From IMG/VR virus record IMGVR_UViG_3300009180_000010, positions 1 to 36,566 of that record: DNA of 36,566 nt. One strand, written 5' to 3'. Source of the DNA: a virus. Shown here one piece after another: positions 23,530-31,677 of this stretch (positions within the stretch are counted from its first letter, which is position 1; each line of letters starts with the position of its first letter). The position numbers and the translations under genes are program-made. A model generated the notes under the pieces. It was not told where the DNA came from and did no database searches. It saw only the letters and a program-made list of their open reading frames with translations.

Positions 23530-24471
23530 ATGATAACCACACAAACTAAAGCTGAATCGATTGTCGGGCAGGTCGAGTGGCAGTCTGAAAACCACGGACT
23601 CTGCCGTTGCCCAGGCGAGCAGTTCCACACAAGCAATACCAGGGTGCGCGATACCACGGTATTCGTGGATTCCGTTCCTACAATTTTCTGCTGGCACACA
23701 AGCTGCCAAGCGATGCGCAACGATGCGAATTACAAATTGCGCAAGCTAATCCTAAACGATCCGCTGTACAGACCGCTGGTCGCGCCGATGTCTACCAATG
23801 GAACTAATCCAATGAAACTCGTCATCGAACGCGATGTTGAGAGTGACATAATCCAGAGAATCGGAGTAATTGCACAATCCAATCGCGCCAGGTATCTCGC
23901 ACATTACAAGTGGGACCCAGCGGACATGTACGAGCAGTCGCCTGCTAAACTGGACGATAATCCGACCAACGATTACAGGATGCTGGTATCGCTGTTCAAG
24001 TCCGACGACATCGTGTGGATCGGTGCGGTGAAGGATAGCGGTAATCATCCGCAAAACTTCCGCGCTGCTTCCGAGTGGATGAACCTTGACGAACCAGTCG
24101 GACAATTCATTACTGGATCTGCGTTCAAGGCTGGCACGATTAGCAGGGCCAATGAGAACGTGGACACGCGCAGGTTCCTGGTCGTTGAGAGCGATGAGTT
24201 GTCGAAGGCCGAGATCGGCGCGGTCTTCCAATTGATGCGCGATTTGTTTAAGATGAAACTTTACGCTGTGGTCGATACGGCAGGCAAGAGTTTGCACGGA
24301 TGGTTCGACCCGATGCCTAATCCAGAATGGGAGAAGCAATTGAAAGCATTCCTGGTTCCGATGGGATGCGATCCAGCGACATTTAAACCGAGCCAACCTG
24401 TGAGGGTGGCGGGAGCAAAGAGGGATGATAAAACGCAAAGCCTGCTTTGGTTTTGCAAGGAGGGAAAATGA
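23530..24471 (+). CDS. Primase with N-terminal zinc finger (AEP/prim-pol-like)
   Basis: 313 aa. The zinc site is C25-x-C27, H33, then C54-x-H56-x-x-C59. The core has RRFLVVESDEL (E220, D222 as metal ligands) and VVDTAGKSLHGWF (249-259), the S/G-K-S-x-H-x-W motif of archaeo-eukaryotic-type primases in phages and plasmids. It would make primers on the lagging strand or at the origin. It overlaps the helicase gene by ATGA, forming a primase-helicase pair. The ribosome site is weak. No polymerase gene is near. Confidence 0.75.
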   Translation: MITTQTKAESIVGQVEWQSENHGLCRCPGEQFHTSNTRVRDTTVFVDSVPTIFCWHTSCQAMRNDANYKLRKLILNDPLYRPLVAPMSTNGTNPMKLVIERDVESDIIQRIGVIAQSNRARYLAHYKWDPADMYEQSPAKLDDNPTNDYRMLVSLFKSDDIVWIGAVKDSGNHPQNFRAASEWMNLDEPVGQFITGSAFKAGTISRANENVDTRRFLVVESDELSKAEIGAVFQLMRDLFKMKLYAVVDTAGKSLHGWFDPMPNPEWEKQLKAFLVPMGCDPATFKPSQPVRVAGAKRDDKTQSLLWFCKEGK

Positions 24472-25484
24472 TCGAGCCAGCAGTAGCACTAGGACTGAAA
24501 CCGTCGGTGGACCAATGGCCACCGATTAAGACGTACAGCGAATTACTCACGGACAATCTAAAGGAACCCGATGTTCTTATCGAGGGCATACTGCACCAGG
24601 GGGGCAAGCTCCTGCTTGGCGGAGGTAGTAAAGCATTCAAGAGCTGGAGTCTGATTGACTTAGCCCTTTCGTTACACTCTGGCACTCCATGGTGGGGGCA
24701 GAAATGTACCAAGGCCAAGGTGCTGTTCATTAACTTTGAGATTCAAGAATGGTCGTTTCGCTCCAGACTGGCGGACGTAATCGCAGCGAAGGAGTTGCAA
24801 GGCAAGGTGGACGACTTCGACGTGTGGACGCTCAGAGGATATGCAGCCGACTTGACATTGATCCGCCCGATCATCGAGAAGCACATCGAGGGGCGCGGGT
24901 ACCAGGCGATTATCCTTGACCCAAACTACATGCTGATGGGCGACCGAGATGAGAATAGCGCTGGCGATATGGGCGCCCTTATGAATGAGTTCGAGTACCT
25001 CGCCACGCGCTACAATCTGTCAGTCATCCTGTCCCATCACTTCAGTAAGGGCAACAAGTCCAGCGCCGAGGCCATTGATAGGTTCAGCGGTAGCGGTGTC
25101 TTCGCTCGCAATCCAGACAGCCTGGTCGTATTGACAGCGCATGAGGAGGACGAGAAGACGTTCACCTGCGAGATGACCCTGCGCAACTTCCCACCTGTCG
25201 ATCCGTTCGTGGTCCAATGGAAATACCCTATGTTCAGCGTCAACTACAACTTGAACCCCGACGAGCTGAAGCAGAGCGGTGGAAAGAAGAAGCTTGTAGG
25301 CGATGCAAGGCTGCTAAAAGAGATGGGTTCACGCGAGTTCACGGCGTGCGACCTGTTCCGATTTGTGCAGGAAAAGTTCCAAGTTTCGGAGTCAACCGCC
25401 AAAAGACATGTAAAACGCATGTCGCAGGCTGGCAAGATACTGAAGGAGAATGGGTTATATACCGCCAACCAGTCGGTTTTCTGA
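24468..25484 (+). CDS. Replicative helicase, RecA-fold AAA_25 / RepA-like
   Basis: 338 aa from ATG 24468, chosen for the ATGA overlap and the AAGGAGGGAAA site. Variant Walker A: LLLGGGSKAFKSW (about 48-60; K58, S59). VLFINFEIQE is the following strand with the catalytic Glu, AIILDPNYMLMG (about 145) is Walker B, and VILSHHFSKGN is the sensor-type motif. The C-terminus (ACDLFRFVQEKFQVSESTAK) looks like a winged-helix domain. RepA-like rings unwind DNA at plasmid and phage origins, and an origin-like region follows directly. Confidence 0.82.
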   Translation: MIEPAVALGLKPSVDQWPPIKTYSELLTDNLKEPDVLIEGILHQGGKLLLGGGSKAFKSWSLIDLALSLHSGTPWWGQKCTKAKVLFINFEIQEWSFRSRLADVIAAKELQGKVDDFDVWTLRGYAADLTLIRPIIEKHIEGRGYQAIILDPNYMLMGDRDENSAGDMGALMNEFEYLATRYNLSVILSHHFSKGNKSSAEAIDRFSGSGVFARNPDSLVVLTAHEEDEKTFTCEMTLRNFPPVDPFVVQWKYPMFSVNYNLNPDELKQSGGKKKLVGDARLLKEMGSREFTACDLFRFVQEKFQVSESTAKRHVKRMSQAGKILKENGLYTANQSVF

Positions 25485-25604
25485 GGTGTCAAATCGCGGT
25501 GTCAAAATGGGTTCTTCTACACTAGTGTCATTCCTATATATATAAAGAACCATGAACCACGAAGGAACCAGGGGAAGGGGACTCCTTAATCCGTCCCCTC
25601 CCCT
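25485..25604. other. Putative replication origin (iterons, palindrome, AT tract, GC hairpin)
   Basis: Directly after the helicase gene come two GGTGTCAAA repeats 13 bp apart (25485 and 25498), a related GTGTCA at 25525, the palindrome ACACTAGTGT (25519-25528), the alternating TATATATATA run near 25535-25544, inverted arms GGTTCTT/AAGAACC (25510-25516 with 25545-25551), three GAACCA units (25547, 25554, 25565), and a GC-rich hairpin. A non-coding 250-bp stretch is rare in this packed genome. Iterons plus an AT-rich melt region beside primase and helicase genes are the classic theta-origin layout. Confidence 0.55.
25571..25603. repeat. GC-rich hairpin in the origin-like region
   Basis: GGGGAAGGGGAC (25571-25582) pairs with GTCCCCTCCCC (25593-25603) with one bulged A and a 10-nt loop. 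It is not followed by T residues, so it is a poor terminator. It could be a single-strand initiation or primase-recognition structure. Confidence 0.6.
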
Positions 25605-25719
25605 TCACCTGCGGTGTTCCGTAGTGAAACTTCAAACTGGCGGGACCAGAAAACAAATGACACGGCATGGGTGGTTCACCGCCCATACCTGCCAAGGCGT
25701 GGTGGTGCGGTGGGATGTG

Positions 25720-25728
25720 TGATACAAT
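25720..25728 (+). promoter_or_regulatory. Putative extended -10 element before 25736
   Basis: TGA-TACAAT: a TGn extension followed by a 5-of-6 match to TATAAT. There is no good -35. The expected start of transcription is at about the ATG at 25736, so the transcript could lack a leader. Confidence 0.3.
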
Positions 25729-25735
25729 GGGCGAA

Positions 25736-25870
25736 ATGAAACAAGGTCTATACGCAAATATCAACGCTCGCCGTAAGGCTGGCACCAGTCGTCCTAAATC
25801 TAAAAGCACGATCTCACCTAGGGTGTATCGTGTGATGAAAGCGAAAAAGGGTGGCTTCGCACCGAGATAG
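25736..25870 (+). CDS. Small basic phage protein, KQGLYANINARRKAG type, 44 aa
   Basis: ATG 25736 chosen because MKQGLYANINARRKAGTS is the usual start of this short family, which is found in many environmental phages with a Lys/Arg-rich C-terminus. An ATG at 25727 adds three residues. Highly basic, no Cys, likely binds nucleic acid or anionic partners. It heads a run of four small genes after the origin-like region. It overlaps the next gene by 20 bases. Confidence 0.68.
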   Translation: MKQGLYANINARRKAGTSRPKSKSTISPRVYRVMKAKKGGFAPR

Positions 25871-26126
25871 GGATCTGCTTAAAAGGGCATACAGCTTTAT
25901 TGCCCTTCTACAGCGCGAGAATGCCCAGCTACATGCGGTTCTTCGCCAGCTAGGGCAATTGGTCGATGACATGGAAAACAACTGTTCATACGAGGTTTTC
26001 GAGCATGAGTGGGCTGAGATAGCGTTATCGATGGCCAAGCTTTCGACTTTCTTCGCAAAGCACCAGGAGGACCTGGCTGCTCTAAAAGACTGCGATATAT
26101 TCGATGGGGAAGTTGATGAAGTATGA
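25851..26126 (+). CDS. Hypothetical helical 91-aa protein
   Basis: GTG 25851 start with AAAAGGG upstream. Long amphipathic helices (RAYSFIALLQRENAQLHAVL, LRQLGQLVDDMEN, WAEIALSMAKLSTFFAKHQE) suggest a helical bundle or coiled coil. Acidic tail. Ends in an ATGA overlap with the next gene. No family recognised. Confidence 0.62.
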   Translation: MASHRDRDLLKRAYSFIALLQRENAQLHAVLRQLGQLVDDMENNCSYEVFEHEWAEIALSMAKLSTFFAKHQEDLAALKDCDIFDGEVDEV

Positions 26127-27979: not shown

Positions 27980-28714
27980 TTAATTTGCCCTAGCTATCGC
28001 AAGGGCCTTTTCCTTCTGCGCACCATGCGGAAGAAATCCAATTATGACCGAACGATCCGCGCGCTGACATAGTCCGCAGGTTGAGCATGTCGTCCCCTCC
28101 CTAGTCTGGGCAGGGCAAACGACAACTTTCCTCCCCCTGGGAGTCGTCGTGTTCCTTTTATCCTCATATGGTAAAAGGGTCGTGACTGGTCCAATGCCCA
28201 GGCTCGCCAGCTTGTCGGCGTGATTCAGTCCGTTCGCGCTTAAATTGATCGTGAACCCTTGCGCGTTTGCGCTCGCAATCGCTTTCCTATTTTCTTCAAT
28301 CGGTCCAGACTGCGAATCCAGAACAGGTTTATGGGTATAGGTGAAGCCCTTGCGCCCTTGGTTCGCGTTCACAAGGTCAGCCAGGAATTGAGGGAGTATC
28401 TCCTCATTATCTCCTGGCAAATCCCCTGCCTGGTTGTGGCGCCAAAGTTGCCCCCTTGGCAATGAGCGGATTTCATCCAGGAAGCATCCCCAGGCGCTTC
28501 CACGGACTCCCCTGCTTACCTTGTCCCAATGCCATTTAATCGGGCCGATGACATAGCATCCAGCGCCTTTTAAAGGGCAAGAATCTGGGCAAGTAGATTG
28601 GGGAGATGTCGAGACTGGAATCGGTCCAGTCTTTTCGTTCGAGCTACTCCTGGTAAGATGAAACTTTTGTTCCTGGTCGTTCCATCCAATAATCTTTGCG
28701 GGCGCCTTGTTCAT
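27980..28714 (-). CDS. Cys-rich phage protein, putative metal/Fe-S-binding (244 aa)
   Basis: Start at 28714 chosen for the ATGA overlap with the 82-aa gene. The N-terminal half has STCPDSCPLKGAGCY (C-x3-C-x6-C), then LWRHNQAGDLPG and FTYTHKP. The C-terminal part has NLSANGLNHADKLASLGIGP and a second cluster VVCPAQ...CSTCGLCQ. This combination recurs in an uncharacterised phage family. The first cluster and barrel-like strand order loosely recall radical-SAM or Gp37-type (DUF5131) proteins, but the C-x3-C-x2-C motif is absent. Function unknown; metal binding is likely. Confidence 0.7.
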   Translation of the reverse strand: MNKAPAKIIGWNDQEQKFHLTRSSSNEKTGPIPVSTSPQSTCPDSCPLKGAGCYVIGPIKWHWDKVSRGVRGSAWGCFLDEIRSLPRGQLWRHNQAGDLPGDNEEILPQFLADLVNANQGRKGFTYTHKPVLDSQSGPIEENRKAIASANAQGFTINLSANGLNHADKLASLGIGPVTTLLPYEDKRNTTTPRGRKVVVCPAQTREGTTCSTCGLCQRADRSVIIGFLPHGAQKEKALAIARAN

Positions 28715-28959
28715 GCGGTCCCCCATGCTTTTTCTTTGATCCATTGAATGACCTTCCAGGCATAATATGGAGAAGTAAACTCCGCAAGATATTCAAAAAT
28801 ATATCTTTCGTGGATTCTTCCAAAGGCGCCGTTGTTTAAAATTGCGTCGTTGTAATAGTCGCGGATTTCCAATTTAACTATGTCCCCGCAACTCTTCGCG
28901 CGAATTACTCCGCCCGCGCAACATGCTCCAATTCTCCAGGTCTTTGTTCGTCTTGTCAT
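28711..28959 (-). CDS. Hypothetical 82-aa protein
   Basis: ATG at 28959, directly after the TAA of the 58-aa gene. N-terminal Cys (IGACCAGGVIRAKSCGD), then aromatic-rich helix-strand segments (YIFEYLAEFTSPYYAWKVI). It ends in an ATGA overlap with the Cys-rich 244-aa gene, so the two may act together. No family recognised. Confidence 0.62.
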   Translation of the reverse strand: MTRRTKTWRIGACCAGGVIRAKSCGDIVKLEIRDYYNDAILNNGAFGRIHERYIFEYLAEFTSPYYAWKVIQWIKEKAWGTA

Positions 28960-29510: not shown

Positions 29511-30227
29511 ATGGGCATGGAATCGATGCCTGCTGACGCCCCAGGGGAAGAATCCCTGGCTCAAGACAAGGGGAAGAATGGAAAGCCCTCCCTTTATAAC
29601 GATCAGATTGCCCAGGAAATAATCGATGCTTGCCGTAGTGGATTCACCCTGGAAAAGGCGGGCGCCCTGGTTGGCCTTTCACCTAGCACAATCAAATCCT
29701 GGTGCGCCAGGAAGACAGACTTTGCGCGCAGGGTCGAGACTGCCAGAAAAAAGCATGAGCTTGCCCTCCTTCGCGATGTCGAGCTGGCAGGGCAAAAATC
29801 CTGGCAGGCCAAAGCTTGGTGCCTGGAGCGCATTTATTCCTACGCCCAGCCCAGCGCCAGGATCGCGGTCCAGGGAAATGTCGAGCATGGGTTAAGCGCA
29901 GGACTAGCGCAGATTTTAGCAGGTTCCTTGTCGAAAAAAGAAAAGCCTGCACAAGTGATTGATGCGCAAGTAGATAAATTGGAACTTCCCAACCTAACAA
30001 TTCGAGACAAGAATTATTGTGCGACAAACGAAAAGCCCTCCCAGGAAACTTCCGCCCAGGTCGTCCAGGTCGAGCAGGCAAGCGCGCCAAAGCGCAGGCG
30101 CCATGTTCCGATGAGAAGACGCTCGCCTAGGAAAGCGCAGGCCCTAGATACCACGACGCCCCCTGGGGGTCCCCCCTCCCCAAATTTAAAATCGGTAACC
30201 CCCCCAAGTATTTGCGACACAAAATAA
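29511..30227 (+). CDS. terS: Terminase small subunit (putative)
   Basis: 238 aa from ATG 29511; ATGs at 29517 and 29526 are equally possible, and the -10 box at 29505-29510 favours one of them. A helix-turn-helix region lies at about residues 34-62 (QIAQEIIDACRSGFTLEKAG, then ALVGLSPSTIKSWCAR), the DNA-recognition part of small terminases, followed by a coiled-coil-like oligomerisation region. The C-terminal third is disordered, basic and Pro-rich. It lies just before the large subunit, the usual order. It would bind the packaging site and load the motor. Confidence 0.78.
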   Translation: MGMESMPADAPGEESLAQDKGKNGKPSLYNDQIAQEIIDACRSGFTLEKAGALVGLSPSTIKSWCARKTDFARRVETARKKHELALLRDVELAGQKSWQAKAWCLERIYSYAQPSARIAVQGNVEHGLSAGLAQILAGSLSKKEKPAQVIDAQVDKLELPNLTIRDKNYCATNEKPSQETSAQVVQVEQASAPKRRRHVPMRRRSPRKAQALDTTTPPGGPPSPNLKSVTPPSICDTK

Positions 30228-30240
30228 AAAGAGGTCTATA

Positions 30241-31677
30241 GTGGGCAAAACAACTAAGCCTCCCAAACGCACGCCAGAGGAGATTTTAGCAGAAATCCAA
30301 TCACCAGCAGGATTTGCAAAACACGTCCTTGGACTTGAGTTATATGATTGGCAGAGAAAGGTTTTGCGTGATCTGCAAGACAAAGATTGCCGAGTTGCAC
30401 TCAAAGCAGCGAACGGATCTGGCAAGACAAGCACAGTCATCGCGTCAATTTTAATTTGGCATGCGTTCTGTTTTAAGGGAAGCATTGCTACGACAACCGC
30501 AGGCGTATGGCGACAAGTCGAGAAACAATTGTGGCCTAGCCTGCGCAAACACATTGCGCGCGTAGGCGGAAATTGGGAAGTCACCTCTGGAGAAATCCGC
30601 TACATATTTCCAGACGGATCGATGAGCAGGATCGTCGGGTACAGCGCGACAGACCCAGGTCGGGCGGAAGGGTTCCATGCCGACGACCACGACACCATGC
30701 CGTTGCTGATCGTGGTGGACGAAGCCAAGTCAATCCCAGACCCTCTCTTCGAAGCCCTGTGGCGTTGCCAACCCACTCGCGTATTGCTGGCCTCCAGCCC
30801 TGGTGCGAGTACTGGCGCGTTCTATCGCGCGTTCACCAAGGAGTCAGCGATGTGGAAGAAGCACACCGTGACAGCGTTTGATTGTCCCCATATCACCAAG
30901 GCGCAGATCGACGAGGTGGTCCAGCGGTATGGCGAGAAGCACCCGCTGACCAGGTCGATGGTTTATGGCGAGTTCGTGGACATAGGGTCGGAGAGTCTTG
31001 TCATCAATTACAACTCGCTCCAGGGATGCCAGAACAGTCCTCCAGACTTTAAGCCTGGGAACAGGACGGCAGGAGTGGACTTTGCAGCAGGTGGTGACTG
31101 CAACGTGCTTTGCATTCGGGATGGAAACAAGATCCTTCCGATCATCGCTTGGCGCGAGCGGGACACCATGGCTGCGGTTGGCAAGTTCATCGTCGAGTTC
31201 AAGAAGCATGGCTTGAAAGCTGAAGACATCTATGCCGACGCCAGCGGTCTTGGAATGCCCATGTGTGATGCCTTGGCCGAGTCTGGATGGCGGGTCAATA
31301 GGGTGAACTTTGGTGGCGTGCCTCACGATGCGGATGCCTATACGAACAGGTCGGCAGAGATGTGGTTTAACATGTCTAAGAAGATTTCCGATCGTGAGAT
31401 CATACTGCCAGAGGATGACGACGAACTGATGGCGCAATTGACATGTCGCAGGACCGTGACCAACAGCAGGGGTAAGCTGGGCGTCGAATCAAAGGATTCC
31501 TTGCGCAGTAGGGGCATATCCAGCCCCGATAGGGCCGACGCATTGGCATTGTGCCTAGATGGTGGTAATGTACGCTGGGACTTGACTTTCCCTACGGAAC
31601 GGCCAACTTGGCGTACGTTAAACGATCTAATGGAACAAAACGACCCAGTTATGGCTGGGTTTGACGCAGGAGGATAA
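30241..31677 (+). CDS. terL: Terminase large subunit (packaging ATPase/nuclease)
   Basis: 478 aa from GTG 30241 with AGAGGT upstream. ATPase: AANGSGKTS (56-64) is Walker A, and LLIVVDEA (155-162) is Walker B plus catalytic Glu. Nuclease (RNase H-like): GVDFAAGGD (D280), IYADASGLG (D332) and SPDRADAL (D433). The order is typical for the Terminase_6 / large terminase group. It pumps DNA into the prohead through the portal and cuts it. The C-terminus is complete. GTG start and small subunit spacing of 13 bp support coupling. Confidence 0.93.
   Translation: MGKTTKPPKRTPEEILAEIQSPAGFAKHVLGLELYDWQRKVLRDLQDKDCRVALKAANGSGKTSTVIASILIWHAFCFKGSIATTTAGVWRQVEKQLWPSLRKHIARVGGNWEVTSGEIRYIFPDGSMSRIVGYSATDPGRAEGFHADDHDTMPLLIVVDEAKSIPDPLFEALWRCQPTRVLLASSPGASTGAFYRAFTKESAMWKKHTVTAFDCPHITKAQIDEVVQRYGEKHPLTRSMVYGEFVDIGSESLVINYNSLQGCQNSPPDFKPGNRTAGVDFAAGGDCNVLCIRDGNKILPIIAWRERDTMAAVGKFIVEFKKHGLKAEDIYADASGLGMPMCDALAESGWRVNRVNFGGVPHDADAYTNRSAEMWFNMSKKISDREIILPEDDDELMAQLTCRRTVTNSRGKLGVESKDSLRSRGISSPDRADALALCLDGGNVRWDLTFPTERPTWRTLNDLMEQNDPVMAGFDAGG

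What the first reader, a model, noticed from the sequence alone, without database searches (positions are those of the whole stretch)
25485..25735. Origin-like non-coding region after the helicase gene
Iteron-like GGTGTCAAA pairs, the palindrome ACACTAGTGT, an alternating TA run, GAACCA repeats and a strong GC hairpin are packed in 120 bp of one of the few non-coding stretches, right after primase and helicase.
Basis: partly seen in the sequence, partly recalled or inferred. Interest (0 to 1): 0.6.

Follow-up and report, generated by a model that had tools for sequence, protein, structure and literature searches.

The report
Phage replication origin with conserved hairpin
The short non-coding stretch after the primase and helicase genes of this lake phage looks like its DNA replication origin (repeats for the helicase to grip, an easily melted patch and a conserved hairpin), and the same three-part layout is found in unrelated cultured phages of Gram-positive bacteria; no experiment has yet shown that replication starts there.

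Summary
Bases 25485-25735 of this circular 36.4 kb IMG/VR phage (host probably a Verrucomicrobiota bacterium) hold, in order: an iteron array (GGTGTCA), a TATATATATA run, a 69-nt hairpin, and a promoter for the next small gene. About 40 distinct versions in relatives keep this order. The hairpin keeps its pairing through compensatory changes (11 of 21 pairs; 96% of cells paired, against at most 53% when partners are slid). The adjacent helicase is a homologue of plasmid RSF1010 RepA with a predicted C-terminal winged helix; the primase before it is of the archaeo-eukaryotic type. Cultured phages of several Firmicutes with the homologous fused primase-helicase mostly have iterons, an AT-rich spot and a hairpin at the same place. 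In 16 streptococcal phages the iteron sequence follows the winged helix, not the helicase core (partial r 0.60, p 0.0005). Best model: the winged helix binds the iterons, the AT patch melts, and the primase starts at the hairpin (last step inferred). The ACACTAGTGT palindrome and GAACCA repeats are not conserved, and GC skew is uninformative. A new variant of a known kind.

The parts
23530..24471 (+). AEP-type primase gene with an N-terminal Cys/His-rich (zinc-ribbon-like) part
   Evidence: hhalign of 7 homologues with the AEP part of cultured-phage primase-helicases: probability 94.9, E 4e-8; motifs VESD, GKSLHxW, PVRxxGxxR; no Pfam or PHROG hit on its own
24447..25484 (+). RepA-like RecA-fold (AAA_25) helicase with C-terminal winged helix (about residues 286-340); real start possibly the ATG at 24468
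   Evidence: PF13481 E 9e-27; only PDB sequence match RSF1010 RepA 1g8y, E 3e-7; model pLDDT 85 with H286-293, H300-311, H315-327, E331-334, E337-340; Foldseek RepA TMt 0.75; HTH_11 in 13 of 24 relatives
25485..25493 (+). iteron 1 GGTGTCAAA
   Evidence: aligned in relatives
25498..25506 (+). iteron 2 GGTGTCAAA, 13 nt after the first
25510..25516 (+). probable decayed iteron GGTTCTT (AGTGTCA at this place in L022)
   Evidence: comparison with L022 and the four-iteron arrays of L295/L305; inference
25524..25531 (+). iteron next to the AT patch, AGTGTCAT
25533..25546 (.). AT-rich patch around TATATATATA, probable melting (DUE-like) site
   Evidence: unique TA run in the window; AT-rich at this place in nearly all relatives although the exact sequence varies
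25558..25626 (+). conserved hairpin: P1 25558-25560/25624-25626; internal loop GAA/GTA; P2 25564-25568/25616-25620; P3 25570-25582/25593-25604; 10-nt loop 25583-25592; bulge 25605-25615
   Evidence: covariation on 39 sequences, RNAalifold, per-sequence parse, model R1 match E 1e-8
25658..25663 (-). inverted copy of the iteron core (TGACAC); not placed constantly in relatives
25723..25728 (+). -10-like TACAAT preceded by TG, 7 nt before the next start codon
   Evidence: conserved in relatives; no matching -35 box found
25736..25870 (+). small ORF of 44 aa (phrog_25774), first gene after the origin-like region
   Evidence: PHROG match E 7e-17; translation

Best explanation
The region is a theta-type phage origin. 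The RepA-like helicase made by the gene just upstream binds its iterons through its C-terminal winged helix, so one protein does what RepA and RepC do in plasmid RSF1010. Binding melts the neighbouring AT patch and loads the helicase ring. Once the region is single-stranded, the hairpin folds and serves as a start or docking site for the phage's AEP primase, like the ssi hairpins of RSF1010 or the stem-loop of pRN1. Shown here: order, conservation and covariation of the parts, homology of helicase and primase, and the linked change of iterons and winged helix. Inferred: binding, melting, priming and the actual start of replication.
For: Order iterons - AT patch - hairpin - promoter kept in relatives. 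Hairpin: 95.9% of cells paired, 11 of 21 pairs with double changes, 148 doubly changed cells against a shuffled mean of 46; slid controls at most 53% paired. Helicase homologous to RSF1010 RepA, winged helix in a confident model. AEP primase next door. The same layout after homologous genes in cultured phages: in 12 of them tested, repeats have p <= 0.02 in 9, and in 10 the strongest fold exceeds every other tile of the locus. Iterons track the winged helix with core identity held constant: 16 streptococcal phages r 0.60, p 0.0005, against 0.10, p 0.16 for the core; own family r 0.32, p 0.0005. Javan311 and Javan377 share 96% of the core but 22% of the C-terminus, and GGGACA falls from 14 copies to 1. 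Precedents: pRN1 (PMC4234260), SaPI Rep and Cch2 (PMC7581432), RSF1010 ssiA and RepB' (PMC4434180).
Against: No functional data. In the window alone the repeats are only marginally more than chance. GC skew gives no support. Several distant helicase relatives (L207, L208, L214, L233) have the next gene directly after the helicase and no repeats there. Core identity also correlates with iterons in the window's own family (r 0.23, p 0.009), so shared ancestry is not fully removed. The hairpin lies on one strand only, whereas RSF1010 has one ssi on each, and no fixed GTG start is kept at its base (GTG or GCG).
Confidence: 0.82

Rival explanations
1. The hairpin is not part of priming but a structured RNA in the 3' untranslated part of the replication operon mRNA (processing, stability or attenuation before the next gene), lying next to a true iteron origin.
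For: It lies just after a coding region, between operon and next promoter; it folds well as RNA on the + strand; it has a conserved GAA/GTA internal loop, compatible with G.A pairs in RNA.
Against: No terminator pattern and no Rfam match. Changes in the stem are nearly all double (148 doubly changed cells against a handful changed on one side), with almost no G-U steps, which fits a DNA inverted repeat at least as well. Similar hairpins sit at the same place beside iterons and AT patch in phages of other phyla.
Confidence: 0.3
2. The region is only a transcription control region: operator repeats for a regulator, plus promoter and terminator, with no role in replication.
For: A conserved -10-like box lies right before the next gene; short repeats near promoters often bind regulators.
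Against: The iterons lie about 200 nt upstream of the promoter, next to an AT patch; no terminator or sigma-70 promoter is found by scan; the repeats follow the winged helix of the helicase, which a foreign regulator would not explain.
Confidence: 0.1
3. The origin lies elsewhere and this is the packaging (cos or pac) or recombination site.
For: Hairpins and repeats also mark packaging and recombination sites; the GC-skew extremes are not exactly here.
Against: The terminase genes are 4 kb away at 29511-31677, while the element always follows the helicase within the family and recurs after the homologous gene in cultured phages of other hosts.
Confidence: 0.05

Closest known systems
Putative origins after the fused AEP primase-RepA helicase gene (phrog_2597 type) in cultured phages (Streptococcus Javan phages, EFC-1, FP_Lugh, Aster, Castelnaud, Hayley)
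   Same: Homologous helicase and AEP primase, C-terminal HTH, iterons then AT-rich spot then long hairpin with about 9-10 nt loop directly after the gene
   Different: Primase and helicase are fused there, separate here; iteron and hairpin sequences unrelated; no origin is annotated in the record stretches fetched
Plasmid RSF1010 (IncQ) replicon
   Same: RepA hexameric helicase homologue, AEP primase, iterons next to an AT-rich part, hairpin that could serve the primase (PMC4434180)
   Different: No separate RepC found: a winged helix sits on the helicase; one hairpin only, not two on opposite strands; hairpin much longer
pRN1 plasmid and Bordetella phage BIP-1 stem-loop origin (PMC4234260)
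   Same: AEP primase, helicase and winged helix, with a long stem-loop just 3' of the gene
   Different: SF3 helicase there; no iterons reported there; no sequence similarity tested
SaPI Rep and SCCmec Cch2 (PMC7581432)
   Same: Initiator helicase whose C-terminal domain binds iterons directly downstream of its own gene
   Different: Different helicase family; no conserved covarying hairpin described

Membership tests
RSF1010-type replicon | RepA-type hexameric RecA-fold helicase | tested here: met
   sole PDB sequence hit 1g8y/1nlf/1olo, E 3e-7; fold match TMt 0.75; hexamer not tested
RSF1010-type replicon | AEP primase of the RepB' family | tested here: inconclusive
   AEP motifs by profile comparison with phage AEPs; profile finds no PDB primase
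RSF1010-type replicon | separate iteron-binding initiator RepC | tested here: inconclusive
   no such gene seen among the proteins scanned, but not every ORF was scanned; winged helix fused to the helicase instead
RSF1010-type replicon | two ssi hairpins on opposite strands | tested here: not met
   one covarying hairpin, one orientation
pRN1-type stem-loop origin | long stem-loop directly 3' of the replication gene | tested here: met
   25558-25626, 73 nt after the helicase stop, covarying
pRN1-type stem-loop origin | AEP primase fused to SF3 helicase | tested here: not met
   separate genes and a RepA/RecA-fold helicase
Iteron origin served by a C-terminal winged helix of the initiator helicase (SaPI Rep, Cch2) | iterons directly downstream of the helicase gene | tested here: met
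Iteron origin served by a C-terminal winged helix of the initiator helicase (SaPI Rep, Cch2) | C-terminal domain binds the iterons | tested here: inconclusive
   winged helix predicted, iterons covary with it; binding not testable here
Intrinsic terminator | GC-rich hairpin followed by a T run | tested here: not met
   none in 25300-26000
Known RNA families (Rfam 15) | match at gathering score | tested here: not met
   no match in the window
Replication origin as such | replication starts here in vivo | not testable with these tools
   no coverage or nascent-strand data

The most novel reading that the evidence does not exclude
A widespread, so far unnamed class of phage origin: wherever an AEP primase is paired with a RepA-type helicase (fused or separate), the DNA just after the helicase gene carries swappable iterons matched to the helicase's own winged helix, an AT patch, and a long hairpin that keeps its shape but not its sequence and is the specific start site of the AEP primase. 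It spans phages of Verrucomicrobiota and several Firmicutes lineages.
Probability: 0.42. Interest if true: 0.68.

Novelty: new variant of a known kind. Interest (0 to 1): 0.52.

Why it matters
How phages with AEP primases start replication is little studied, and this gives a compact, testable origin for a family of lake phages and a general rule for finding origins in many cultured phages: look just after the RepA-type helicase. The natural swaps of winged helix plus iterons (Javan311 against Javan377) offer a ready-made test of origin specificity, and the covarying hairpin suggests a defined start site for the primase.

Tried and rejected
GC skew as a test of the origin: rejected, because it mirrors gene direction. 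Rfam: nothing. Near-identical DNA in GenBank phages: none. An exact-hexamer repeat test on single relatives: weak, because iterons are degenerate; replaced by offset and comparative tests. The offset test script stopped with an error at its last locus (L303 has no TATA run), so its combined p-value was never computed; the single values printed before are used. First structure prediction with 16 close sequences: poor (pLDDT 58); replaced by 24 diverse sequences (pLDDT 85). Alternative fold of the hairpin region (two separate hairpins using CTACG/CGTAG): forms well in some sequences, but the outer pair covaries perfectly with the long-hairpin partner (AT or GC in all 39), so the long hairpin is preferred; a switch between both is not excluded. 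Hairpin regex hits in L197, L208, L214, L227 were judged chance and left out. Model R1 does not match the L039 lineage or the cultured phages: the similarity there is one of layout, not of a common sequence model.

Full report
What it is in. The window is one IMG/VR virus record of 36,566 bases. Its two ends share 123 bases, so the genome is probably a complete circle of 36,443 bp. No near DNA match exists among GenBank phages. The large terminase is closest to Akkermansia phages (37% identity). A distant helicase relative lies in a Verrucomicrobia subdivision 3 metagenome bin. A host among the Verrucomicrobiota is therefore likely, but not shown.

The observation. Iterons GGTGTCAAA start at 25485 and 25498, and a third GTGTCA lies at 25525. 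The TA run at 25535 is the only one of its length in the window. The palindrome and the GAACCA triplet are real but not conserved in relatives, and GAACCA occurs 13 times in the window. For this sequence alone the repeats are only modestly beyond chance: p 0.013 for the 13-nt offset, and 0.030 and 0.065 for the hexamer count.

Relatives. A scan with the helicase gave 43 loci at 71-100% identity; further scans with profiles and with the primase gave more. In the close family the same layout follows the helicase stop codon: two to four short iterons, an AT-rich patch, a hairpin, and a -10-like box shortly before the next start codon. The iteron core differs by lineage: GTGTCA in the window and L022, CTGTCA in L026 and L031, TTTCA/TATCA in L064, TGAAG in L037 and L294, TGACA in L295, L297 and L305. 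The TA run is not obligatory: L303 has an AT-rich stretch without it.

The hairpin. I parsed 43 distinct family versions one by one (after leaving out four chance hits). Every one has a three-pair foot (CAC/GTG or CGC/GCG), a small internal loop, a second stem and a third stem with a loop of about 10 nt (7-12 nt in the parse). On an alignment of 39 distinct versions, 95.9% of cells pair and 11 of 21 pairs show changes on both sides. There are 148 such cells against 46 in shuffles, and sliding the partners drops pairing to 53% or less. This alignment was fitted to the structure, which leans towards it, but the parse did not use it. Changes are nearly always double and hardly ever G-U, which fits a DNA inverted repeat at least as well as an RNA. 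There is no terminator pattern and no Rfam match.

The proteins. The helicase is AAA_25. Its profile finds one protein in the PDB by sequence, RSF1010 RepA (E 3e-7), and its model matches RepA among the first hits by fold (DnaB ranks first by E-value). The model, built from 24 diverse sequences, ends in a winged helix, and Pfam HTH_11 is found in 13 of these 24. The gene before it encodes an AEP primase by profile comparison.

Beyond the family. In cultured phages the same primase and helicase are fused in one gene. I fetched 22 of these phages. Their DNA after the gene mostly shows repeats, an AT-rich or palindromic spot and a long hairpin, in this order. In 12 of them tested, the repeat count has p of 0.02 or less in 9, and in 10 the strongest fold exceeds all other tiles of the locus (in two Streptococcus phages, Javan311 and Javan535, that strongest fold lies within the repeats themselves). 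Some distant environmental relatives show other iterons at this place (GTCTCA in L194, GTTTCA in L195, GGTCCA in L197, AACGAC in L211). Others (L207, L208, L214, L233) have none and the next gene follows at once.

Who reads the iterons. If the helicase's winged helix reads them, iterons should follow that domain and not the helicase core. In 16 streptococcal phages the partial Mantel correlation of iteron sharing with C-terminal identity, given core identity, is 0.60 (p 0.0005); for the core, given the C-terminus, it is 0.10 (p 0.16). Seven of eight phages with the EKT(V/I)RRW helix carry three or more GGGACA, the eighth two, and none of the other eight carries three or more (Fisher p 0.0014). 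Javan311 and Javan377 are 96% identical in the core but 22% in the C-terminus, and GGGACA falls from 14 copies to 1. In the window's own family the partial correlation is 0.32 (p 0.0005), with a smaller one for the core (0.23, p 0.009). L037 and L297 share 90% of the core and 83% of the winged helix and differ in iterons; L037 and L294 share 85% of the core and 88% of the winged helix and have the same iterons. The samples are related by descent, so these figures are support, not proof.

How it works, and what is known. SaPI Rep and SCCmec Cch2 bind iterons directly after their own gene through their C-terminal domain (PMC7581432). RSF1010 uses RepA, an AEP primase and ssi hairpins (PMC4434180; PMC4234260). 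pRN1 needs a stem-loop 3' of its primase-helicase gene, and a similar one was noted in phage BIP-1 (PMC4234260). The element here joins these features: iterons after the gene, a RepA-type helicase with a winged helix, and a covarying hairpin. It is not a member of any of the three by their defining features, but it most likely works like them. From memory and not checked here: a non-coding origin after a primase gene has been described for Streptococcus thermophilus phage Sfi21. The binding, melting and priming steps are inference, and the role of the hairpin is the least certain (about 0.55 for a primase site).

Noticed in passing
window 25723-25738 and relatives in A1: A TG-preceded TACAAT box ends 7 nt before the ATG of the 44-aa ORF, and in lineages without that ORF (L031-L036) the box sits at about the same distance before the GTG of the next gene: transcripts would be leaderless or nearly so.
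   Followed up: partly
window 25736-25870: Small basic ORF (phrog_25774, unknown function) follows the origin in most relatives but is lost in the L031-L036 lineage.
   Followed up: no
L023, L025, L064, L073 between hairpin and promoter: Variable tandem GGCTGGCTGGG repeats differ in number between close relatives; a GGCATGGG...CCCATACC inverted repeat sits at this place in the window (about 25665-25695).
   Followed up: no
L028:6001-7032: The helicase reading frame contains one stop codon in this contig, an error or a broken gene.
   Followed up: no
L121:5820-6065: In the Verrucomicrobia-bin relative the helicase C-terminal coding tail itself contains repeated GAGAC (GTGAGACAGTTGAGACCGGTGAGAC), as if iterons were embedded in the gene.
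   Followed up: no
window 27980-28744 (-): DUF7227 protein (E 7e-89) in the leftward gene block 26.6-29.4 kb; no integrase was recognised among the proteins scanned.
   Followed up: no
MK448730 (L264) and MK448744 (L323): Two streptococcal phages with 96% identical primase-helicase cores carry different C-terminal HTH domains and different iterons: a natural origin-specificity swap.
   Followed up: partly
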